Positions 1,748 through 16,097 of a stretch of DNA of 21,831 nucleotides are shown in pieces; position 1 is the first letter of the stretch; every line of letters starts with the position of its first letter. Under the pieces are notes generated by a model, which saw only the letters and a list, made by a program, of their open reading frames with translations, was not told where the DNA came from and made no database searches. Position numbers and translations under genes: made by a program. The stretch is from the IMG/VR virus record IMGVR_UViG_3300032288_003799, positions 1-21,831 of that record. One strand, written 5' to 3'. The DNA is from a virus.

Positions 1748-2077
1748 TCACCCGACGGCATCGTTGGCACGTCGTAGGCAAAGCATCGGGATCTCCCATT
1801 TCCCGACGGTGAGAGCTTGTATTGAGTCGATCACGAGCGTGACCTGCTGCCCGTCCTCGATGTCGAGCGCGGCGGACAGTGTGACGGCGTAGTGGCCATC
1901 GCCGCCCTGGTAGGTGGCTGCCTTCGGCCAGGTCTCGCCCGCCACCTGGTCGCCGTCCTCGTCGAGCACGGTGACGCTAACCTGCGCCGCGTTCAGGTAG
2001 GTGCCGCTCAGCACGTCCTGGAGCTTTCGCACGCGGATGAGGTTACTGTTGCCGACCCAGAGCACGTCACGCTGCAT
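1748..2077 (-). CDS. Small phage structural-type protein, unknown
   Basis: 109 aa, ATG 2077 overlapping the last 11 bases of the 918-aa fibre-like gene. The middle (VSVTVLDEDGDQVAGETWPK, then GGDGHYAVTLSAALDIEDGQ) alternates hydrophobic and polar residues like an all-beta, Ig-like fold; no Cys cluster, signal peptide or membrane helix is seen. Phages often carry such a small beta protein directly behind tail fibre genes, where it can act in fibre attachment or assembly. I do not know a family name. The tight overlap says it is co-translated with the fibre-like protein. Confidence 0.65.
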   Translation of the reverse strand: MQRDVLWVGNSNLIRVRKLQDVLSGTYLNAAQVSVTVLDEDGDQVAGETWPKAATYQGGDGHYAVTLSAALDIEDGQQVTLVIDSIQALTVGKWEIPMLCLRRANDAVG

Positions 2078-4823
2078 TGATTAACACCTCCGCGCCTGTC
2101 GTGCGCATGTCCACGATGCCAGTGACCGCGCCCTGGGCGCTGATGTCTGCCTTGACTCGCGCGGCCTGGTCGATGATCGCCGTGGCGTGGCTCTGGTAGA
2201 TGACCCCGCCCACATTGCCCGAACCATCCGCAACGGCGTCCTCTGTGACCGCATCGACGAACCTGACATGGATGACATTGCCAGCCGCTGCCAAGATTGC
2301 CGGGTGAGTCGCCACCCCGAGCGAGGCGAGGGTCTGCGCGAGACCTTCTGCGCTTGAGCTCGCCGCCTCGGTGACCTCGTCCACGCTGGCGATGGTGCGA
2401 GCCGCACCTTGCGCGCTGAGTGTGGCATCCGCGAGCGTCTCTTGTAGGCTGGAACTCGTTGCGACTGCGCCCGAGGCCGCCAGGGTCGCTGGCGCCGTCG
2501 AACTGTCAAGCATTGCTTGACTGCTGACCGCGACTGAGCCGGTGCTGGTTGACGGGTCGGTGACGCTGCCCAGGGCGCCGGACTGCTGCACGCTCCCGAT
2601 TGCCGCGCCGGTGGCGTTGCCCGTGGTTTCGGCCAGGCTGGCCTGCACGCTGAGCTGGATGGTCGCCGCCAGGGTCGCATTGTCTGCGGGGGCGTACATC
2701 GGCCCCGTGACGATGACTCGTGCTTCGGTCGCAATTTCGACGTCGTAAAGCTCAGCAAAGGCGCTTGAATCAGTGGACACGACCAGCGAGGCGGCGCTGG
2801 TGGCGTTTTCCGTCGCGAGGCTGGCATCGGTATCGGTTGCGGTATCCGAGGCAGCAGAGCCGGTTGCCGGGTGAGTCTCAGCCGCAAGGCTGGCCACCGT
2901 TTCGACGATGGCTGCAGCGCTTAGCGTGGCCGGGTCGGTTGTCTCGGCTTGGTCAGAGTCGTTTGATACCTGGGCGGCTGCGGCCAGGGTAGCGGCGTCG
3001 GTTGTCGCCGTAAGCGTGGCCTCGCCGTATATGCCGCCCTCGGCTGCGCTGGTGGCCTCTGCGGTGGTTTCCGCCAGGCTTGAGTCAGTAGCGACCTCGG
3101 CAGAAGCTGCAAGCGTGGCGGCCTCAGTGCTGGCCTCAACGAACACCCCGTCAGAAGCCGTGAGGCTGCCGGAGAGCGTTGCTGCTGCCGTTGTTTGGTC
3201 GGCAGTTAGGATGACCTCTGCAGTGGCAGAGGCTGCCACTGTTGCCGCGTCAGTGGTACTGGTCAGCGTGCTGTCGGTGGCGATCGTGCCTGCGGCTGCC
3301 AGGGTGGCGTCGTCGGTGGTTTCTGCCTGCGTGCCGGCGCCAACAATTTGCGCGGCGATGTTTGCCGTGCTGTTTGCGGTGGTCTGCGCAAGCGTGGCGT
3401 CAGCAAAAATGCCGCCGGTGCCGGCCAAGGTGGCGCTGGTGGTTGCAGCCAGGCTAGAGCTGGTCGCAACGGTGGCACTCGCGGACAGGGTGGCAGCGTC
3501 GAGCCCTTCTTCCAGCACGACAATTCCATCCACCAGGATGTCAATCGCGCTGGTGGCGTTTGCCGTGGTTTCGGCAAGGCTGGCATCAGTGTTGAGATCG
3601 CCCGCGGCGCTGCCGGTGGCGGCTTCGGTGGTTTCTGCGACCGTGCCGGTGACAATGACCTGGGCAGATGTTGCCAGGGTTGCAGGGTCGGTTGTCTCGG
3701 CAAGGCTTGAAATCGCCTCGTTGAACGAGACCACGCCGGATGCCGAGAGCGTCGCGGCATTCAGTGTTGCGCTAAGCGTGCTGCCTGTTGCAATCGTGCC
3801 AGATGCGGCAAGCGTGGCGTTGTCGGTGGTTTCGGATTGTGACGCCTGAACCGCTACGGTCGCGGAAATGCTGGCTGTAGCGGCGGCTGTCGTGCTCGCA
3901 AGCGTTGCAAGCGACGCGACGGTTGCGGTGACAAAGCCGCTCGCGTTGATCGTGGTGTAAGCAAGCGTCGATCCAGTTGCAACAACGGTCGGCGCTGAGC
4001 TTGTCGCGTTGTCCGACGTGCTGGCAACGGTGCCGGAGATGTTAGCTTCTGGCTCTCCGAATAATCTGTACACCGGCGCGCGCGGGGTTCGCTGCGCGAT
4101 GGTCGGATTGATGTTGGAACGCGAAAGGTTGTAGGCGTTCGCGGCGTTCATGATTTCGTTGTCAGTGAACTTGTTCCGCGCCGCGTTGATTTCAGTATGC
4201 GCCGCCAGCCGCATCAGCCCGTCCGGGCGCATGCGGACCGAGGTCATCGGAAAATAGTATTTAAGCGCCCACGGCCTGATCGTTGTCGGGTCAGCGCCAC
4301 GCGATAGCGCAAGCATCTCACCAGTTGAGAGCGCCTCATTCCAGATCGCCGCGTGCGCCATGAACCCGGCGAAAAAATTATCGACCGACGTTGCTTGGTT
4401 GTAGACCGATGCGCCGATTGCGACATCGTTTGCGTCAATAGGCGCTGTTCTGCTGTTCGTGTTTGCTGTTGCGGCGGTGCCGTTTAGCCAAGCGGTTCGC
4501 AGCGTGCTGGAATTGAAAACGCCAGCGCAATGATTCCATCGCCCAGCGACGACAGTGCCTGAGGTGGTGGAAGCGTTAGCGGCTGATGCGTCCGCGACTT
4601 GCGCGGCTAGAGTGCCTGTCGTATTGAGGAAAAGCCGTATAGTTTCGCGGTTGGTTGCGGTTGCGTTTACCGACCCAAGCCGAAGCAGGCCGCGATTAGC
4701 TGCAGCCGTTACGCTGTCAGGATTGATCCAGACCGAAAACGTGTACGGGACGGCCGTGAGGTCGGCCGGGACAAGGAAATCCTTGTAAACGTAAGAGGCG
4801 GCGCCGTCAAAATACGCAGACAT
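2067..4823 (-). CDS. LamG-domain, 21-residue-repeat tail fibre-like protein
   Basis: 918 aa, ATG 4823, 7 bases after the previous stop. Residues 1-195 form a LamG/concanavalin-like jelly roll (YFDGAASYVYKDF, YTFSVWINPD, GRWNHCAGVFNSSTLRTAWLNG, FFAGFMAHAAIWNEALS), a carbohydrate- or surface-binding fold. A linker follows to about residue 265. From there to about 860 the chain is an almost unbroken run of roughly 28 repeats, nearly all exactly 21 residues, with pattern ATLAASAxVxxxSSLAETTDx; it is extremely rich in Ala, Thr and Ser. The last 45 residues are non-repetitive. Related beta-type repeats occur in phage tail proteins, so a fibrous extended stalk exposed on the virion is the likely role. 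It lies among structural-looking genes after the endolysin. One diverged repeat also ends the J-like protein at 17598. Confidence 0.8.
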   Translation of the reverse strand: MSAYFDGAASYVYKDFLVPADLTAVPYTFSVWINPDSVTAAANRGLLRLGSVNATATNRETIRLFLNTTGTLAAQVADASAANASTTSGTVVAGRWNHCAGVFNSSTLRTAWLNGTAATANTNSRTAPIDANDVAIGASVYNQATSVDNFFAGFMAHAAIWNEALSTGEMLALSRGADPTTIRPWALKYYFPMTSVRMRPDGLMRLAAHTEINAARNKFTDNEIMNAANAYNLSRSNINPTIAQRTPRAPVYRLFGEPEANISGTVASTSDNATSSAPTVVATGSTLAYTTINASGFVTATVASLATLASTTAAATASISATVAVQASQSETTDNATLAASGTIATGSTLSATLNAATLSASGVVSFNEAISSLAETTDPATLATSAQVIVTGTVAETTEAATGSAAGDLNTDASLAETTANATSAIDILVDGIVVLEEGLDAATLSASATVATSSSLAATTSATLAGTGGIFADATLAQTTANSTANIAAQIVGAGTQAETTDDATLAAAGTIATDSTLTSTTDAATVAASATAEVILTADQTTAAATLSGSLTASDGVFVEASTEAATLAASAEVATDSSLAETTAEATSAAEGGIYGEATLTATTDAATLAAAAQVSNDSDQAETTDPATLSAAAIVETVASLAAETHPATGSAASDTATDTDASLATENATSAASLVVSTDSSAFAELYDVEIATEARVIVTGPMYAPADNATLAATIQLSVQASLAETTGNATGAAIGSVQQSGALGSVTDPSTSTGSVAVSSQAMLDSSTAPATLAASGAVATSSSLQETLADATLSAQGAARTIASVDEVTEAASSSAEGLAQTLASLGVATHPAILAAAGNVIHVRFVDAVTEDAVADGSGNVGGVIYQSHATAIIDQAARVKADISAQGAVTGIVDMRTTGAEVLINAA
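2260..4030 (-). repeat. About 28 degenerate 63-bp in-frame repeats in the fibre-like gene
   Basis: The protein repeats every 21 residues with anchor ATL at the start of each unit and ETTD near the end. Only a few units differ in length (24, 24, 20, 18). At DNA level the copies are diverged but keep recurring pieces such as GTGGCGTTGTCGGTGGTTTC-like segments on the plus strand. Boundaries are approximate. Confidence 0.8.
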
Positions 4824-8048: not shown

Positions 8049-8470
8049 GACATCTCCCTCCGTGCGACTGGCCAGCACCGCACCAGGACGGCCGGGCTTT
8101 CTGCGTAGAGCTTCAAAACCTGCAGGCTGACGATCTGCGAATCGTCCAGGTACAAGATCCCATTGCAGGCGTCCTCGATCGACTTGACCAGGTTGGACAG
8201 GTCAGGCCGCGAGGTGGGCCAGTGCTCGCAGGCGATCGCCTTCGCGCGCTTGGCCTTGGGCCAGGACGGGGGCACCGGCTGATAGAACTGGACCGATAGC
8301 GACACCGGGCCATCCATCGGCATCGTGCGGCCCATCGCCCGGCGAGCGTGGCGCGCGACCACCTGCTGCCAGGCGCGGGTCTCCGGCTTGGTGAACACTC
8401 GCCCCTGGTTGATGCCTGCTCGCTGCCAGGGGACCGCCTTCGCCTCGATCGAGAAGGCCACCTCGTTCAT
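8045..8470 (-). CDS. rusA: RusA-family Holliday junction resolvase
   Basis: 141 aa, ATG 8470 overlapping the previous stop (ATGA). The fold-typical opening VAFSIEAKAVPWQRAGI is followed by a basic stretch, and the catalytic region RPDLSNLVKSIEDACNG ILYLDDSQIV (residues 88-113) matches RusA: D90, K96, D100 and the DD pair at 109-110. E. coli RusA has Asp-x-Asp at the first site; here the second is Ser92 (PDLSN), a variant that I believe also occurs in other phage homologues. RusA dimers cut Holliday junctions symmetrically, resolving recombination and replication intermediates before packaging. It follows DUF6475, as expected in a replication/recombination operon. Confidence 0.9.
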   Translation of the reverse strand: MNEVAFSIEAKAVPWQRAGINQGRVFTKPETRAWQQVVARHARRAMGRTMPMDGPVSLSVQFYQPVPPSWPKAKRAKAIACEHWPTSRPDLSNLVKSIEDACNGILYLDDSQIVSLQVLKLYAESPAVLVRCWPVARREMS

Positions 8471-9078
8471 CGCAGCGCCACCGCGGGCAGCAGCTCGCGC
8501 AGGAGCGCAGGCTTGTCGCTGCCTCCCTGGTACACGAGCTGCGCGCGCTTGGCGTCGCCGAGCATGACGGGCGGCTGGGTGTGGAACCCGCGCTCGCGGT
8601 TGGAGGCTTCCGCCTTGCCGATGAGGCTGGGCGGGTAGTGCGGGATGGCGCCTTGCTGCTTGTAGCCGAGATACAGCCGCTCGAAGTCTTTCGCGCGGAA
8701 TGGGATCTCGTCCTCGGTCATTTGGCAGACCTTCATCCAGCCGCCCATCTGCTCGAGGCATGCGTGGATGAGCGGGTCATCGAACACGACCGACTGCCAG
8801 CTCCCGACCAGGCGCACGGCCTCGACCACGCGCGCCCAGGCGCGAGCGGCGACCGTGGTGTTGCTGCCGGAGATGCGCCGCACCAGGTCCGCAGGCTTGG
8901 GCGGGTACTGCCCGACATCGGGGTCGAGCAGGTGAACCTCGAGCGCCCGGAGCACGTCCTCGGTCTCATACCGGGCAAGCGCGCGGGTGTAGAGCTCTAG
9001 AACGTCCGGCGTCATCGGCCGGTTGTAGAGGGTCATGCACGCGGTCAGCGCGGACCCAAAGCGATCGGGATCAAGCAT
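8467..9078 (-). CDS. DUF6475 phage replication-region protein
   Basis: 203 aa. ATG 9078 overlaps the initiator stop (ATGCTTGA). Opening MLDPDRFGSALTACMTLYNR and the stretch LDPDVGQYPPKPADLVRRIS are features I recognise from DUF6475 proteins in phages of Burkholderiales. A later part reads VFDDPLIHACLEQMGGWMKV and EIPFRAKDFERLYLGYKQQG. The position immediately behind the initiator is where lambda carries P (helicase loader) or other phages carry a helicase; general resemblance to loader-type helical proteins makes a helicase-loading role plausible, but no ATPase motif is present and the function is unproven. Confidence 0.75.
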   Translation of the reverse strand: MLDPDRFGSALTACMTLYNRPMTPDVLELYTRALARYETEDVLRALEVHLLDPDVGQYPPKPADLVRRISGSNTTVAARAWARVVEAVRLVGSWQSVVFDDPLIHACLEQMGGWMKVCQMTEDEIPFRAKDFERLYLGYKQQGAIPHYPPSLIGKAEASNRERGFHTQPPVMLGDAKRAQLVYQGGSDKPALLRELLPAVALR

Positions 9079-9802
9079 CGATCGTCCTTTCTGCGGCCCG
9101 TCGCCGCCTCTTGAACTCCTCCAGGGCCGCCGCGTTGGTGTCCTCCACCGTCTGCCGGCCTGTTGATTTGCGCAGCGGGAACACGCCCCTCCAGGCGTTC
9201 TGCACCGACTGCAGGAGCACCTCGGCGGGATCGTGCCCTTCTTGCTTGAGCTGCTCAAGTTGGACGATCGTCCTGTCGATAGATACAGCGGTCATCGGGG
9301 CGCGCACCTTGCGGCGCATCTCCAGAAAGGCTGCCCAGGCGTCAGCCGGCAGCCACTCGGGCAGGTGCAACCTGCCTTTATCTGTTCTTCTGGGTCGTTC
9401 CATTGGTTCGTTCTTCTGGTACGTTCGTGCAACCTCAGAGGTTGCGGGGGGTGCAACCTCAGAAGTTTCGGGGGGTGCAACCTCAGAGGTTGCAGGGGGT
9501 GCAACCTGGAGAGCATCGGTGGGGGCATCGAACAAGATGCGGATCTCGTCCGAGCTGCGCCCGCCATCGTCTCGAATACGACCTCGTCGCTGGACGTAGC
9601 CACGGCGCTCGAGCTCGCCCAGGTATCGGCCGATCATCTGCCGAGACATCCCGGCGAGCTCTGCCAGGCGTGACTGACTGGGCCAGGCCCAGCCGTCAGA
9701 GTTGGTGTGCATGCCCACGGCCGCCAGGACCAGGAGAGCACCTCGGGGTAGCTCACGGTCAAGAATTGCGCGGGCGGGTAGGATTGCGAACTGCGCTGTC
9801 AC
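9071..9802 (-). CDS. Phage replication initiator (winged-helix, O-like), carrying the origin iterons
   Basis: 243 aa, GTG 9802, first gene of the leftward operon facing the repressor. Residues 15-85 form a winged helix of the HTH_36 kind (RELPRGALLVLAAVGMHTNS; WAWPSQSRLAELAGMSRQMI; YLGELERRGYVQRRGRIRDD). A Pro/Ala/Thr/Glu linker of tandem TSEVAPPx repeats spans about residues 100-125 and is encoded by the 24-bp DNA iterons. The C-terminal half is helical and basic (LEEFKRRRRAAERTIDA). Layout matches lambda O: DNA-binding N-domain, origin in the middle of the gene, C-domain for the helicase loader. Binding of the winged helix to the palindromic iterons is inferred. Confidence 0.8.
   Translation of the reverse strand: MTAQFAILPARAILDRELPRGALLVLAAVGMHTNSDGWAWPSQSRLAELAGMSRQMIGRYLGELERRGYVQRRGRIRDDGGRSSDEIRILFDAPTDALQVAPPATSEVAPPETSEVAPPATSEVARTYQKNEPMERPRRTDKGRLHLPEWLPADAWAAFLEMRRKVRAPMTAVSIDRTIVQLEQLKQEGHDPAEVLLQSVQNAWRGVFPLRKSTGRQTVEDTNAAALEEFKRRRRAAERTIDA
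9370..9428. other. AT-richer stretch beside the iterons, candidate DNA unwinding element
   Basis: Next to the first iteron the sequence becomes T-rich on the plus strand (TTTATCTGTTCTTC, then GGTTCGTTCTTCTGG), unusual in this GC-rich region. In lambda an AT-rich block flanks the O iterons and is the first part to melt. The function is inferred from this arrangement. Confidence 0.4.
9429..9507. repeat. 24-bp tandem iterons, each with a 17-bp palindrome: probable replication origin
   Basis: Units begin at 9429, 9453, 9477 and a partial fourth at 9501, exactly 24 bp apart. Units 1 and 3 contain GCAACCTCAGAGGTTGC, a perfect palindrome (8+1+8). Unit 2 differs at two positions in the right arm; unit 4 keeps only GCAACCT. 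They lie inside the initiator gene, as the iterons of lambda lie inside O. Confidence 0.75.
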
Positions 9803-9895
9803 GGTGCTCCTGTTCTCCGCTCATTGGCGGCTGTTCTTGTATTGCACCACAGATAGTAGAAGCAATCCGTTTCAAAATCCACTACACTGCACCGC
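9803..9895. promoter_or_regulatory. Divergent regulatory region between repressor and initiator
   Basis: 93 bp separate the leftward initiator start from the rightward repressor start, so both promoters and the operators must be here. Direct repeats CTGTTCT at 9810-9816 and 9831-9837 are 21 bp apart (two turns) and enclose CCGC-TCATTG-GCGG (9817-9830). ATTGC at 9841-9845 and GCAAT at 9862-9866 form a wider inverted pair. TACACT at 9884-9889 and TACTAT (minus strand, near 9853-9858) are possible -10 boxes, but no clear -35 partner is seen. No cro-like gene lies on the leftward side. Confidence 0.5.
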
Positions 9896-10357
9896 ATGAG
9901 CACCACAGACTCCGACATTGCAGATTTTGCCGCGCGGCTGCGAGAGGCCGCGGAGGTTCGCGGAAAGACATCGGGCCGCGCCAAGTCCGGCGTGGACCTG
10001 GCCGCGATGTCCAAGGCTGCTGGGGTGAGCTTCGAGCTCGCCAGGCGTTATGCCGACGGCCTGGCGATGCCCAGGCCGCGGGTGGTGCGCGCGCTGGCCG
10101 AATGGCTGGGCGTGCAGACTGACTGGCTGTTATTTGGGCACGGGCCAATGGAGGCCGAGCCTGCTCTTAACCTGGATCTTCTTGAGACCTGTATCACCGC
10201 GGTCGAGGAGGCACAGTCGATTGCGGGGATGCGGCTGCCGTCGGCCCGCTCTGCGTCGTTGGTGGCTGAGTTGTATCGCGATGCCCTGGTAGGCGTTTCG
10301 CCCTCTCCTCGGTCGGTCTCGGCGGTCATCCGTGCATTGATGAGAGATGACACTTGA
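9896..10357 (+). CDS. HTH repressor-type regulator (immunity repressor candidate)
   Basis: 153 aa, ATG 9896; a possible -10 TACACT lies so close that the mRNA leader may be very short. An XRE-type helix-turn-helix occupies residues 10-80: FAARLREAAEVRG, SGVDLAAMSKAAGVSFELAR RYADG, PRPRVVRALAEWLGVQTDWL LFG. The C-terminal part (LLETCITAVEEAQSIAGMRL) is short and helical. There is no S24/LexA-like peptidase domain with its Ser-Lys pair, so RecA-stimulated self-cleavage is not expected. Its divergent placement against the initiator operon and ahead of a recombination operon is that of lambda cI. A Cro-like or general regulator is the alternative. The stop overlaps the next small gene by 11 bases. 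Confidence 0.75.
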   Translation: MSTTDSDIADFAARLREAAEVRGKTSGRAKSGVDLAAMSKAAGVSFELARRYADGLAMPRPRVVRALAEWLGVQTDWLLFGHGPMEAEPALNLDLLETCITAVEEAQSIAGMRLPSARSASLVAELYRDALVGVSPSPRSVSAVIRALMRDDT

Positions 10358-10629: not shown

Positions 10630-11283
10630 ATGCTGAAAAGTGACACCATTGCCGAGCTGGCCAAGGCTCTGGCGCAGGCGCAGACCGCATTCGATGCGAT
10701 CAAGCGCGATCGGACCGTCAAGGTCCAGACCAAGACCGGCGGCTCGTACACGTTCGCCTACGCGCCGCTCGACACCATCCTGGCTGCTATCCGGCCGGCT
10801 CTCGCGCAGCACGGTCTCGCGCTCGTCCAGGCTTCACACATTGAAGCTGGCGCCGAGTTCTTGCGCACCACCCTGCTGCATGCCTCGGGCGAGTTCATCG
10901 CGAACGACACCGCCGTCCTGGTCAGCGACCGCGGCCCGCAAGCGTATGGCTCGGCCCTGACCTATGCGGCCAGGTATGGCGTGACTAGGCTGCTGTGCCT
11001 GGCCTCCGAGGACGATGACGATGGCAATGCGGCCGAGGGTAACGCGGCCGAGCGGGTGCAGCGTGCTCGCAAGGTCGAGAAGGTAGAGACCATCACGGCC
11101 GACCAGACTGCCGAGCTGCAGACCTGGGCCGATGAGCTCGGCGTGGACCTGGTGCAGTTCTGCAAGTTCATGAACGTGCCGAGCCTGGCCGCCATCCCTG
11201 CAGACCGCTATGGCGCCGCGCGCAATGCGCTTGAGGCCAAGCAGCGGGCGAAGCTCAAGGCCGAGCTCGAGGCTGCGTCGTGA
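10630..11283 (+). CDS. erf: ERF-family single-strand annealing protein
   Basis: 217 aa, ATG 10630 with GAGGTGACAGG upstream. Residues 1-135 are the ERF domain: FAYAPLDTILAAIRPALAQH GLALVQ, then FLRTTLLHASGEFIANDTAV and the hallmark QAYGSALTYAARYGVTRLLC followed by an acidic run EDDDDGN. The C-terminal part has a charged linker and a second helical region (TADQTAELQTWADELGVDLV), perhaps a C-terminal module for nuclease or SSB contact. ERF proteins form rings on single strands and anneal complementary DNA; the usual partner exonuclease is encoded two genes further on. First gene of the operon, so likely expressed early after infection or induction. Confidence 0.92.
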   Translation: MLKSDTIAELAKALAQAQTAFDAIKRDRTVKVQTKTGGSYTFAYAPLDTILAAIRPALAQHGLALVQASHIEAGAEFLRTTLLHASGEFIANDTAVLVSDRGPQAYGSALTYAARYGVTRLLCLASEDDDDGNAAEGNAAERVQRARKVEKVETITADQTAELQTWADELGVDLVQFCKFMNVPSLAAIPADRYGAARNALEAKQRAKLKAELEAAS

Positions 11284-11453
11284 TTCTGCGCGACTTCGCA
11301 GACCGCTTGGACCTGCGCAGCGGAGACCTCACCGAAGAAAAGCGCCGCCAGGCTATTGCGTGGCTGGGGAAGCGTTGGCTCCTCCACCCGGCGAACAGTC
11401 CGAAGAAAGGCGCATATGACCACCGTGGACAAAAGGAACACACCAATGTTTGA
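11280..11453 (+). CDS. Small phage protein between ERF and exonuclease, unknown
   Basis: 57 aa. GTG 11280 overlaps the ERF stop (GTGA) and the TGA at 11451 lies within the exonuclease start (ATGTTTGA), so translation can run through all three genes. The sequence is basic, with MILRDFADRLDLRSGDLTEE, KRRQAIAWLGKRWLLHPANS and a polar end. WLGKRWLLHPAN is reminiscent of small uncharacterised phage proteins. No domain is assigned. Coupling on both ends and a protein-like composition argue that it is real; a role as accessory factor of the recombination pair is a guess. Confidence 0.6.
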   Translation: MILRDFADRLDLRSGDLTEEKRRQAIAWLGKRWLLHPANSPKKGAYDHRGQKEHTNV

Positions 11454-12402
11454 GCTGACTGTTGAGAATCCCGAACGCATCGACCTGGAGCAGGGCACCG
11501 CTGAATGGCTGGCCTGGCGCTCGGCCCGTTACACCGCATCCGATGCGCCGGCTGTCATGGCGCAGTCGCCCTGGTTTCCCAAGACCCCGCTCGAGCTCTA
11601 CCAGCGCCGCACAGGCCAGAAGTCGGTGGCCGTGAATGCTGCCATGCGTGCGGGCCAGGAAGATGAGGCGCTCGCTCGCGAGATTCTGTCGCGCGAGATC
11701 AAGGCCCTGGCTGTGCCGGCGTGCTGGCAGGCCACGGTCGACGGCATGGCCTGGGGCGCATCGTATGACGCGCTCTGCGAGTCCCGCGATGAGGTGTTTG
11801 AAATCAAGCGACCGATGAAGGGCACGGCCTCCGACATGTGGGCGCTCGAGGAGCCCGGGCACTACCGCTGGCAGATGCTGCACCAGCTCATCGTGAACCC
11901 GGCAATCGAGCGGGTCTCGCTCGCGGTGTACGCGCACGATGCGAAGGCTGTGAAGATCTGCGGCACCGTCTCGCGCTTTGACCCTGACTTCGATGCCTAC
12001 GCTGCCGCCCTGGTGGAAGCGTGGCGCGCATTCGATAAGGCAATCATCGATCTCCAGGCGCCGGCGCCGACCGAGCGCGATGTCATCGAGGTGCCGTACT
12101 CCGACGATGACTACGAGCAGCTCGTCACGTCCTGGCTGGCTGCCAAGCGTATGGCCGACGAGGCCGAGCTCAGGCTCGATGCCACGCGCGAGGCTCTGCT
12201 CGAGGCCGCCAAGGCCCGCGGCGAGGGGCTGCCGGTGGTCGGGTTCGGGGTGAAGGCGTACCGCACGGTGCGCCAGGGGAACGTGAACTGGAAGGCGAAG
12301 GAAATCGTGGCGGCGCTGGCCGCTGCCAAGGTGGACCCGGAGAAGTTCCGGGGCAAGGCAATCGAGGCGTGGACGCTTCGAGAAGTAGATGCAAGCAAGT
12401 AA
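11446..12402 (+). CDS. YqaJ-like viral recombinase (5'-3' exonuclease)
   Basis: 318 aa from ATG 11446 (AAGGA 8 bases upstream, overlapping the previous stop); ATG 11416 with AAAGG would add 10 residues and is an alternative. The lambda-exonuclease/YqaJ nuclease core is in the first 190 residues: ERIDLEQGTAEWLAWRSARY TASDAPAVM, AMRAGQEDEALAREI, GASYDALCESRDEVFEIKRP (catalytic D..E-x-K pattern) and HYRWQMLHQLIVNPAIERVS with the conserved Gln. The C-terminal third is helical and may contact the annealing protein. Such enzymes chew one strand so that the ERF protein can anneal the other. Operon order ERF then YqaJ is a common phage recombination module. Confidence 0.9.
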   Translation: MFELTVENPERIDLEQGTAEWLAWRSARYTASDAPAVMAQSPWFPKTPLELYQRRTGQKSVAVNAAMRAGQEDEALAREILSREIKALAVPACWQATVDGMAWGASYDALCESRDEVFEIKRPMKGTASDMWALEEPGHYRWQMLHQLIVNPAIERVSLAVYAHDAKAVKICGTVSRFDPDFDAYAAALVEAWRAFDKAIIDLQAPAPTERDVIEVPYSDDDYEQLVTSWLAAKRMADEAELRLDATREALLEAAKARGEGLPVVGFGVKAYRTVRQGNVNWKAKEIVAALAAAKVDPEKFRGKAIEAWTLREVDASK

Positions 12403-12417
12403 CACAAGGGGGCTTTG

Positions 12418-13308
12418 ATGAAGTTCTACAAGACAAAACCCGAGGCGCAGGTCATGACGATCACGCCCGACATGGCGCGCGAGATGCTGGCCACAAGCCC
12501 AGGCAATCGCACCATGCGCAAGCAGTACGTCGGCATGCTGGCGGCCGCGATGAAGCGCGGAGAATGGCGCGTCACCTCCCAGGGCATCGGGTTCGATAAC
12601 CTGGGGCGCCTGCGTGATGCGCACCACCGCCTGGCGGCCTGTATCCAGGCCGACGTGCCTTTTAGCTCGGTGGTGGTGTTCGGGCTGCGCTCGGACTGCT
12701 ACGAGGTCATCGACACGGGCCTGGCTCGCTCGTACTCCGACCGCATGGAGGTCGACCCGCACACCGCCGAGGCTTTGCGGCTGGGGTGCGCGATTGCCCT
12801 CAAGACCAGGAAGCCCACCATCGACGAGATGCGGCCAATCCTGGAGGCCGGATTCGCGGACACGGTCATCGCCCTGCACCAGTTTTGCCCGACCAGGCGC
12901 CGCGTGTATTCCACCGCCTCGATGAGGCTGGCGGCCTGCATCGTCATTATGGCGGGCGGTGACCCTGAGTTCGTGATGACTCAATACCAGGCGCTCGTGC
13001 GCGAGGATTTCCAGGCGATGACCATGCACTCGCAGGCCCTGGTGCGCTACCTCAACGGCTCGAAGATTACCGGCACCAAGAAGGAGGAGATCCTGGCGCG
13101 CGGCCTGAAGGTGTTCGACAAGCATCGCGCAGGCATCACGGTGGCCAAGCTCAGCCCGCAAGAGATGCAGAGCGCGCCCGAGTTCGTGCGCTCGGTGCTG
13201 CTCGATTCTGTCTCGAGCACGGAAGAACGGCCGCGCGAGTTCCGGGTGATGCCCGCCGCGCTGCGCCAGGTGAACCTCAACACGGGGGCCGAAGCATGTC
13301 CAGCCTAA
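12418..13308 (+). CDS. ParB/DGQHR-like phage protein
   Basis: 296 aa, ATG 12418 with AAGGGGG 6 bases upstream; a TTG one codon earlier is less likely. Residues 15-90 read [60 protein letters not shown] and FSSVVVFGL, like the ParB-type N-terminal fold with the DGQHRL motif seen in many phage proteins; here it reads [21 protein letters not shown]-like text follows ([16 protein letters not shown]). The remaining 180 residues are helical. ParB-fold phage proteins vary from DNA-binding to nuclease or NTPase; none can be picked here. It is overlapped by SSB for 13 bases and belongs to the recombination operon. Confidence 0.7.
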
Positions 13309-13706
13309 ACAAGGTGATGCTCATCGGGAACCTGGGCGGCGATGTCGAGGTGCGCAGCACCCAGAGCGGCCAGCAGGTGGCGACCTTGAACGTCGCGACC
13401 TCGGAGAGCTGGAAGGATTCCAGCGGGGCAAAGCAGGAGCGCACGGAATGGACGCGGGTGGTGTTCTGGGGGCGCCTGGCGGAAATCGCCGGCCAGTACC
13501 TGGAGAAAGGCTCGAAGGTGTACGTCGAGGGGTCCCTGGTGACTCGCAAGTACACCGACAAGGCAGGGGTCGAGAAGTATGCCACCGAGGTCAAGGGGCG
13601 CGAGCTCGTGCTCCTGGGCGGCAAGGGTGGCGGCAATCCTGGGCGGCAGCCGCCGGTGCAGGACGACCCAGGTGATGACGGATTCAACGATGACATTCCG
13701 TTTTGA
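13296..13706 (+). CDS. ssb: Single-stranded DNA-binding protein
   Basis: 136 aa, ATG 13296. The OB fold is plain: [72 protein letters not shown] and [15 protein letters not shown] (residues 4-108). A Gly/Pro/Asp linker leads to the acidic tip [10 protein letters not shown], the conserved C-terminal peptide that recruits partner enzymes. Shorter linker than in host SSB (usually 160-180 aa), as typical for phage SSB. It coats single strands made by the exonuclease and helicase. It overlaps the previous gene by 13 bases, pointing to coordinated translation with the recombination genes. Confidence 0.95.
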
Positions 13707-15260: not shown

Positions 15261-16097
15261 ATGAATGAGCTGGCTCTTTTCGCAGGCGCTGGCGGCGGAA
15301 TACTCGGAGGCCACCTGCTCGGATGGCGAACAGTGTGCGCTGTCGAGTGGGACCCCTATGCCGCAAGCGTATTGTGCGCACGACAAAATGATGGCGTTCT
15401 CCCGACTTTCCCGGTTTGGGATGACGTTCGCACCTTTGACGGCAAACCGTGGCGCGGAATTGTTGACGTGGTTTCTGGGGGGTTTCCGTGCCAAGACATC
15501 AGCTCAGCAGGCAGGGGTGCAGGACTTGACGGAGAGCGATCCGGGCTCTGGCGAGAGATGGCACGGGTGGTTGGCGAAGTTCGACCAAGATTTGTCTTTG
15601 TGGAGAACAGCCCAGCTCTCACTCGCAGAGGGGGAACCCGAGTTATTGGAGACCTTGCCGCGCTCGGGTATGACGCGCAATGGGATGTTATGGGAGCGGC
15701 ACACGTTGGTGCTCCGCATCAGCGAGACAGAATCTGGATTGTGGCCTACTCCAACGACACAAGACAACGCGCAAGTGCGAAAGACAGGAGCTGCGGAAAA
15801 CAAGAAAAAGCGCGGCACCACTTTGGGGGGCGCTGTTCGCATGTATCCAACCCCGCAAGCAAGCGACAACAGGAACCGCGGGAACGCGGACACTCCGGCC
15901 ATTGCCAGAAGAATTGCCGCTGGAAAACAGGTCATGCTCACAATGACGGTCAGTGGTACGCAGTTGAACCCGACGTGGGTCGAGTGGCTGATGGGGTGGC
16001 CGCTCGGATGGACAGACTTAAAGCCATTGGAAATGGACAAGTTTCTGCAGTGGCAGCGGCTTCATTTGAATTGCTGTCTGGAGGAATAAATGTCTGA
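15261..16097 (+). CDS. dcm: DNA cytosine-5 methyltransferase (Dcm family)
   Basis: 278 aa, ATG 15261, AGAGG 6 bases upstream. Motifs appear in order: I, LFAGAGGGILGGHLLGWRTV; II, VEWDPYAASVL; IV, GGFPCQDISSAGRGAGLDG with the catalytic Cys; VI, FVFVENSPAL; VIII, QRDRIWIVAY; and the C-terminal X-like AIGNGQVSAVAAASFELL. The stretch between about 165 and 240 is polar, Cys/His-rich and would be the target-recognition part. Such enzymes methylate cytosine using S-adenosylmethionine, in phages to escape host restriction. A second long ORF (15265-16089) reads nearly the entire gene in the +1 frame. This segment also looks less GC-rich than flanking genes. The gene overlaps the DUF3310 start by 8 bases. 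Confidence 0.92.
   Translation: MNELALFAGAGGGILGGHLLGWRTVCAVEWDPYAASVLCARQNDGVLPTFPVWDDVRTFDGKPWRGIVDVVSGGFPCQDISSAGRGAGLDGERSGLWREMARVVGEVRPRFVFVENSPALTRRGGTRVIGDLAALGYDAQWDVMGAAHVGAPHQRDRIWIVAYSNDTRQRASAKDRSCGKQEKARHHFGGRCSHVSNPASKRQQEPRERGHSGHCQKNCRWKTGHAHNDGQWYAVEPDVGRVADGVAARMDRLKAIGNGQVSAVAAASFELLSGGINV
15265..16089 (+). CDS. Overprinted ORF within dcm, +1 frame (MSWLFSQ-type phage protein)
   Basis: 274 aa, ATG 15265, only 4 bases after the dcm ATG (ATGAATG) and served by the same ribosome site; TAA 16087-16089 abuts the DUF3310 ATG. The product starts MSWLFSQALAAEYSEATCSD, contains LSRFGMTFAPLTANRG and LSLWRTAQLSL, then WPTPTTQDNA and YPTPQASDN segments, and ends LNPTWVEWLMGWPLGWTDLK. 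I recognise this pattern, including the GLWPTP and WVEWLMGWPxGWTDL signatures, from phage proteins, so it is not a random shadow. The role is unknown; it may be a partner of, or be made in place of, the methyltransferase. The full-length two-frame overlap is the notable feature of this locus. Confidence 0.75.
   Translation: MSWLFSQALAAEYSEATCSDGEQCALSSGTPMPQAYCAHDKMMAFSRLSRFGMTFAPLTANRGAELLTWFLGGFRAKTSAQQAGVQDLTESDPGSGERWHGWLAKFDQDLSLWRTAQLSLAEGEPELLETLPRSGMTRNGMLWERHTLVLRISETESGLWPTPTTQDNAQVRKTGAAENKKKRGTTLGGAVRMYPTPQASDNRNRGNADTPAIARRIAAGKQVMLTMTVSGTQLNPTWVEWLMGWPLGWTDLKPLEMDKFLQWQRLHLNCCLEE

What the first reader, a model, noticed from the sequence alone, without database searches (positions are those of the whole stretch)
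9370..9507. Lambda-type replication origin inside the initiator gene: 24-bp iterons with perfect palindromes beside an AT-richer stretch
Three full units plus a part, exactly 24 bp apart; GCAACCTCAGAGGTTGC in units 1 and 3 is a perfect 17-bp palindrome. The period is a multiple of 3, so it reads as repeated TSEVAPPx in the linker of the winged-helix protein. This mirrors the O gene of lambda, yet the initiator and iteron sequences are unrelated to those I know.
Basis: partly seen in the sequence, partly recalled or inferred. Interest (0 to 1): 0.7.

Follow-up and report, generated by a model that had tools for sequence, protein, structure and literature searches.

The report
Phage replication origin inside initiator gene
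This is very probably the place where an uncultured bacterial virus starts copying its DNA, a row of protein-binding repeats hidden inside the gene for the start protein, built like the classic origin of phage lambda but with a different binding word that is shared by other phages whose start protein has a related DNA-reading domain.

Summary
Three 24-bp units (9427-9498) and a half unit (to 9508) lie in the linker of a 243-aa O-like initiator gene (minus strand). Units 1 and 3 carry a 17-bp palindrome around one unpaired base.

The lambda-type reading is supported. The protein matches PHROG 678 'replication initiation O-like', as lambda O does. It has a winged-helix N-domain, a predicted disordered linker exactly over the repeats, and a C-domain followed by a DUF6475 gene in the P position.

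Comparative tests support it strongly. O genes carry such repeats far beyond synonymous shuffles (67 of 144; 1 of 142 neighbouring P genes). Iteron type follows the N-domain, not the C-domain. A blind search for a 16-base motif of the relatives' iterons gave 30 stretches, 14 inside O-like genes whose N-domain resembles this one. In relatives the repeats shift reading frame, so DNA, not peptide, is conserved.

'Unrelated to those I know' needs correction: related iterons occur in cultured Pseudomonas, Stenotrophomonas and Sphingopyxis phages. It is a new member of a known kind. Nothing was tested at the bench.

The parts
9071..9802 (-). O-like replication initiator gene, 243 aa, GTG start at 9802 preceded by AGGAG; its end overlaps the start of the next gene
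   Evidence: PF13730 HTH_36 E=4.5e-10 at aa 17-70; PHROG 678 'replication initiation O-like' E=6.9e-28 at aa 20-223
9536..9781 (-). winged-helix N-terminal domain (aa 8-89), presumed iteron-binding domain
   Evidence: AlphaFold2 model: four helices then two strands, pLDDT mostly 78-94; Foldseek best matches are winged-helix DNA-binding proteins, but none reaches E 0.001
9377..9526 (-). coding stretch of the interdomain linker (aa 93-142), predicted disordered; holds both repeat arrays
   Evidence: pLDDT below 50 at aa 93-114 and 121-142
9427..9450 (.). iteron unit 1, with perfect-arm palindrome at 9429-9445
9451..9474 (.). iteron unit 2, imperfect palindrome (2 mismatches)
9475..9498 (.). iteron unit 3, with perfect-arm palindrome at 9477-9493
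9499..9508 (.). partial fourth iteron (half-site GTGCAACCTG)
9375..9426 (.). presumed DNA unwinding element: four 13-bp repeats (coding strand GAACGTACCAGAA, GAACGAACCAATG, GAACGACCCAGAA, GAACAGATAAAGG), T-poor on the coding strand (A25 G13 C11 T3)
   Evidence: 13-bp periodicity P=0.003-0.004 against synonymous resampling, least stable 50 bp of the gene at 9376-9425; base counts
9360..9376 (.). outlying half-site within a 7-bp-arm inverted repeat, coding strand GGCAGGT TGC ACCTGCC, on the far side of the unwinding stretch; role unknown
8467..9078 (-). gene in the lambda P position: 203-aa DUF6475 protein, presumed helicase loader
   Evidence: PF20081 E=8.3e-34; homologue annotated 'replication protein P' in Shewanella phage X14; no detectable similarity to lambda P itself

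Best explanation
A lambda-type replication origin lies inside the gene of its own initiator. The winged-helix N-domain of the 243-aa protein binds, most likely as a dimer, the inverted-repeat iterons at 9427-9508. The resulting complex, with negative supercoiling, opens the adjacent 13-bp-repeat stretch at 9375-9426. The C-domain then recruits the product of the next gene (DUF6475), which brings the host DnaB helicase onto the opened strands. Shown here: the repeats, the domain layout, membership of the O-like family, co-variation of iteron and N-domain across phages, conservation at DNA rather than peptide level, and low duplex stability just downstream of the iterons. Inferred from lambda (PMC5043065, PMC7466680, PMC6022878): dimer binding, strand opening, helicase loading and the start of replication there.
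For: PHROG 678 match E=6.9e-28, which lambda O also matches at 1.7e-35. Of 144 O-position genes (nearly all upstream of DUF6475 genes), 67 carry period repeats beyond all 200 synonymous shuffles, against 1 of 142 neighbouring DUF6475 genes; lambda O is positive in the same test. Sharing of repeated 7-mers between O genes rises from 2.5% (N-domains unrelated) to 30% (N-domain similarity 0.4-0.6). With unrelated N-domains, C-domain similarity up to 0.4 changes nothing (2.2-2.9%); Mantel r=0.51, 0 of 2000 permutations. The window's own repeated 7-mers are shared best with L128, L108, L126 and L007, which rank 1, 3, 4 and 8 of 145 in N-domain similarity. A scan of IMG/VR with only the DNA motif TGCACCCCNCCCCTGCA gave 30 stretches: 10 lie in O-like reading frames matching the window N-domain and 4 more in such genes in the opposite orientation. 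In relatives the spacing is 17, 22 or 23 bp, so units are read in all three frames; DNA, not peptide, is kept. In 18 of 32 iteron-bearing O genes the least stable 40 bp begins just 3' of the iterons (mirror window 2, chance 1.9). The closest relative by neighbouring gene (58% identical) and C-domain, L094, has a different N-domain and lacks these iterons.
Against: No binding, footprint or replication data exist. The iteron array is short (three units, one imperfect, plus a half; lambda has four). The 9375-9426 stretch is 54-56% AT, less extreme than lambda's 38-40-bp AT-rich region, and several other stretches of the window are less stable. The DUF6475 partner shows no similarity to lambda P, so its role is by position and one annotation. 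Local GC skew shows no clear switch at the site. The record is a 21.8-kb fragment, so other origins cannot be excluded. No sigma-70-like promoter was found upstream of the gene.
Confidence: 0.9

Rival explanations
1. The repeats are operators through which the protein (or another HTH protein) regulates transcription of the early operon, not an origin.
For: The protein is a winged-helix DNA-binding protein. An iteron half-site TTGCACC also occurs once in the 93-bp gap between this gene and the divergent repressor-like gene, at 9842-9848.
Against: The sites lie 300 bp inside the coding region, next to the least stable stretch of the gene, in an O-P gene pair. The same layout recurs in dozens of O genes and in lambda, where it is the origin.
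Confidence: 0.05
2. The repeat is a low-complexity protein linker (TSEVAPPx) selected or tolerated at peptide level; the DNA repeat is a by-product of slippage.
For: The period is 24, a multiple of 3, and the peptide repeats almost exactly. The palindrome alone is only modestly beyond what the peptide forces (P=0.012). The linker is predicted disordered.
Against: Relatives with a similar N-domain keep the DNA half-sites at 17-, 22- and 23-bp spacing, in all three frames and even in inverted orientation, with different linker peptides. The DNA identity exceeds synonymous shuffles.
Confidence: 0.03
3. A lambda-type origin by descent that is no longer used, with this phage replicating from another origin or by another mode.
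For: The middle unit is decayed and the array is short. The record is a fragment of unknown completeness.
Against: Both genes of the pair are intact and two iterons keep perfect arms. For lambda, two iterons with the adjacent AT-rich region are the minimal fragment competent for unwinding (PMC7466680).
Confidence: 0.05

Closest known systems
Phage lambda ori and O-P genes
   Same: Inverted-repeat iterons inside the initiator gene between an N-terminal DNA-binding domain and a C-terminal domain; unwinding stretch immediately 3' of the iterons; partner gene overlapping the end of O; shared PHROG 678
   Different: Iteron sequence and length (24-bp units here, 18-bp iterons 20-24 bp apart in lambda), fewer units, less AT-rich unwinding stretch made of 13-bp repeats, DUF6475 partner instead of lambda P
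O-like genes with CCCC-TGCA...TGCA-CCCC iterons in cultured phages: Pseudomonas Itty13, PotUPM1, PseuP_224, Stenotrophomonas CUB19, Sphingopyxis VSN-002; variants in Vibrio vB_VpM-pA2SJ1 and Aeromonas vB_AsaM-56
   Same: Related N-domain, CCCC(C)YGCA / TGCACCCC half-sites in the linker; most followed by 10-13-bp repeats beginning GAAC
   Different: Inner spacing: TGCA-N5-TGCA in relatives, TGCA-N11-TGCA in the window; relatives have 12-bp GAACCRTMAATA-like repeats, the window 13-bp GAACGNACCARAA-like; C-domains and downstream genes differ
Burkholderia phage Bcep176 gp11-gp10 and Erwinia phage PEp14 O-like gene
   Same: O-like gene followed by a DUF6475-type gene, with 22-24-bp iterons in the linker
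   Different: Different iterons (AACAGTCCCAAA; GAGGGCAAATTGCCCT) and, by alignment score, no or only weak N-domain similarity

Membership tests
lambda-type O initiator with in-gene origin | Sequence membership of the O-like family | tested here: met
   PHROG 678 E=6.9e-28; lambda O matches the same family at 1.7e-35. Direct profile comparison with lambda O is weak (E=0.044)
lambda-type O initiator with in-gene origin | Inverted-repeat iterons within the O gene, in the interdomain linker | tested here: met
lambda-type O initiator with in-gene origin | AT-rich or unstable stretch adjacent, 3' of the iterons | tested here: met
   9376-9425 is the least stable 50 bp of the gene; same polarity in 18 of 32 iteron-bearing relatives
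lambda-type O initiator with in-gene origin | Iteron specificity set by the N-terminal domain | tested here: met
   Co-variation by comparison only
lambda-type O initiator with in-gene origin | Partner P gene (helicase loader) directly downstream | tested here: inconclusive
   DUF6475 gene overlaps the end of O; one homologue annotated 'replication protein P'; no similarity to lambda P
lambda-type O initiator with in-gene origin | Protein binds the iterons, opens the DNA and replication starts there | not testable with these tools
   needs gel shift, footprint and origin mapping

The most novel reading that the evidence does not exclude
The 10-13-bp repeats beginning GAAC that follow the iterons in this N-domain group are a second, sequence-specific element of the origin (for example bound as single strand by the initiator or the helicase loader), not merely an easily melted stretch. 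In two relatives nearly the same DNA is read in different frames (IEPSIEPS in L128, RTVNRTVN in Stenotrophomonas phage CUB19), which points to selection on DNA. Against generality: the array is not clearly enriched in the wider set of O genes (5 of 144, synonymous shuffles 1.4), and the window's own 13-mers only resemble the group motif.
Probability: 0.2. Interest if true: 0.5.

Novelty: new member of a known kind. Interest (0 to 1): 0.38.

Why it matters
It shows that the lambda origin design, with binding sites written inside the coding sequence of their own binder, is a widespread module in phages of Pseudomonadota. N-domain and iterons appear to be exchanged together, while C-domain and partner can vary separately. 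That gives a ready data set for working out which residues of the winged helix read which iteron, and a way to predict origins in uncultured phages from sequence alone.

Tried and rejected
Close relatives of the whole initiator: none by short-peptide scans of viral or genome contigs, no similar phage DNA, no whole-length relative in named phages; so the neighbour gene was used as bait. Exact searches for the window iteron: the two-unit pattern found nothing, and the single palindrome found one stretch inside what looks by eye like a capsid gene, a chance match. GC skew: uninformative. Sigma-70 promoter scan upstream of the gene: none. Solved structures by sequence: none for this protein or for lambda O. 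Homology of the DUF6475 protein with lambda P: not found. A general GAACC-repeat unwinding motif for all O genes: rejected. The TGCACCC motif count was chosen after seeing relatives, so the unbiased 7-mer test and the motif-only collection scan were added. The scan motif itself comes from the relatives' iterons; the window has a spacing variant of it.

Full report
What is there. The window is a 21,831-base virus record. On the minus strand a 243-aa gene (9071-9802) matches PHROG 678, replication initiation O-like, at E=6.9e-28 and Pfam HTH_36. Inside it are three 24-bp units at 9427-9498 and a partial unit to 9508. Units 1 and 3 hold GCAACCTCAGAGGTTGC, whose 8-bp arms pair perfectly around one central base; the middle unit has two changes. 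The repeat exceeds all 200 synonymous shuffles of the gene and all 3000 synonymous resamplings of the region. The palindrome alone is less striking (P=0.012), because the peptide TSEVA partly forces it.

On the coding strand, directly after the iterons, come four 13-bp repeats (GAACGTACCAGAA, GAACGAACCAATG, GAACGACCCAGAA, GAACAGATAAAGG; 9426 down to 9375). The 13-bp periodicity has P=0.003-0.004 against synonymous resampling, and 9376-9425 is the least stable 50 bp of the gene, in the top 0.4% of the window. The stretch is strand-asymmetric, 25 A to 3 T. A review of origin opening notes strong strand asymmetry (purines on one strand) for the AT-rich region of lambda (PMC5043065). Beyond it lies one more half-site (9360-9376).

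Protein. The model has a winged helix at aa 8-89, disorder at aa 93-142 and a helical C-domain from about aa 153. The disordered linker is encoded by the stretch that holds the two repeat arrays. This would explain how binding sites can be written into coding sequence without harm. Foldseek finds winged-helix DNA-binding proteins, at weak significance. The next gene, overlapping by a few bases, is a DUF6475 protein, annotated 'replication protein P' in Shewanella phage X14 but with no detectable similarity to lambda P.

Comparative survey. DUF6475 genes were used as bait, giving, with named phages, 144 distinct O-position genes. Of these, 67 have repeats beyond every synonymous shuffle, against 1 of 142 DUF6475 genes; lambda O is positive and lambda P negative. 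Some of the 67 are simple-sequence stretches, so the figure covers iterons and low-complexity repeats together. Among 32 with iteron-like periods, the least stable 40 bp of the gene starts just 3' of the block in 18, upstream in 2, with 1.9 expected.

Across 126 O genes, sharing of repeated 7-mers rises with N-domain similarity (2.5% to 30%). Among pairs with unrelated N-domains it does not change with C-domain similarity up to 0.4; a top bin of 33 pairs above 0.4 shares more (18%). Mantel r=0.51, 0 of 2000 permutations. The genes sharing most with the window are L128, L108, L126 and L007, which rank 1, 3, 4 and 8 of 145 in N-domain similarity. They carry CCCC(Y)GCA...TGC(A)CCCC half-sites like the window's GTTGCACCCCC, spaced 17, 22 or 23 bp, so the peptide changes frame and the DNA does not. 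L094 is the closest relative by the neighbouring gene (58% identical) and by C-domain, yet it has a different N-domain and no such iterons. This looks like exchange of N-domain and iterons as one block.

Independent check. The relatives' motif TGCACCCCNCCCCTGCA was searched alone in IMG/VR: 30 stretches. Ten lie in O-like frames whose N-domain matches the window at E 1e-4 to 2e-10. Four more lie in such genes with the motif on the opposite strand. Four of these 14 were already in the first survey (L128, L129, L108, L126). Among all 1002 frames of those loci, 8 of 24 motif-bearing frames and 4 of 978 others match the N-domain, the 4 being the opposite-strand cases. Cultured phages of Pseudomonas, Stenotrophomonas and Sphingopyxis show the pairing, with variants in Vibrio and Aeromonas. 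Most of this group have 10-12-bp repeats like GAACCRTMAATA after the iterons; in the wider set of O genes this array is not clearly enriched.

Mechanism. From lambda work (PMC5043065, PMC7466680, PMC3349717, PMC6022878), O dimers bind inverted-repeat iterons, the adjacent AT-rich region opens under negative supercoiling, and P delivers DnaB; the N-terminal part of O binds DNA and the C-terminal part binds P. The window has the structural parts of this, so the same mechanism is inferred. Nothing here shows binding, opening or the replication start.

Verdict. It is a new member of a known kind, with a defined iteron family as the added result. Comparative anatomy of origins in lambdoid phages has been studied since the 1970s (Moore et al. 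1979 and Furth and Yates 1978, seen only as references in PMC6022878), so the principle is not new. No paper naming DUF6475 was found in the held library.

Noticed in passing
15261-16097 and 15265-16089, + strand: Two long overlapping reading frames on the same strand (825 bp shared). One is a C5 cytosine methyltransferase (PF00145 E=6e-35, PHROG 363 E=7e-69); the other also matches a PHROG family named DNA methyltransferase (1008, E=7e-27) but no Pfam family. Possibly two conserved proteins encoded in one stretch, or a family built from a misread frame.
   Followed up: partly
9842-9848 and 9887-9892: TTGCACC and TGCACC, like the iteron half-site, in the 93-bp gap between the initiator gene and the divergent HTH (repressor-like) gene 9896-10357; possible operator or autoregulation site.
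   Followed up: no
9817-9830: Terminator-like hairpin just upstream of the initiator gene, on the + strand by the simple scan.
   Followed up: no
2067-4823, - strand: 918-aa protein with many degenerate copies of a repeat like TDxATLAASG; likely a virion or tail-associated protein (by eye).
   Followed up: no
10630-13706, + strand: ERF annealing protein, YqaJ exonuclease and SSB form a recombination module; the same three genes occur in L002 beside an initiator with a different N-domain.
   Followed up: partly
L174-L203: The motif scan also hit three near-identical genes resembling, by eye, a primase-type protein (L186, L191, L197) and stretches in L183 and L196 with several TGCACCCC copies outside any recognised O-like gene; not explained.
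   Followed up: no
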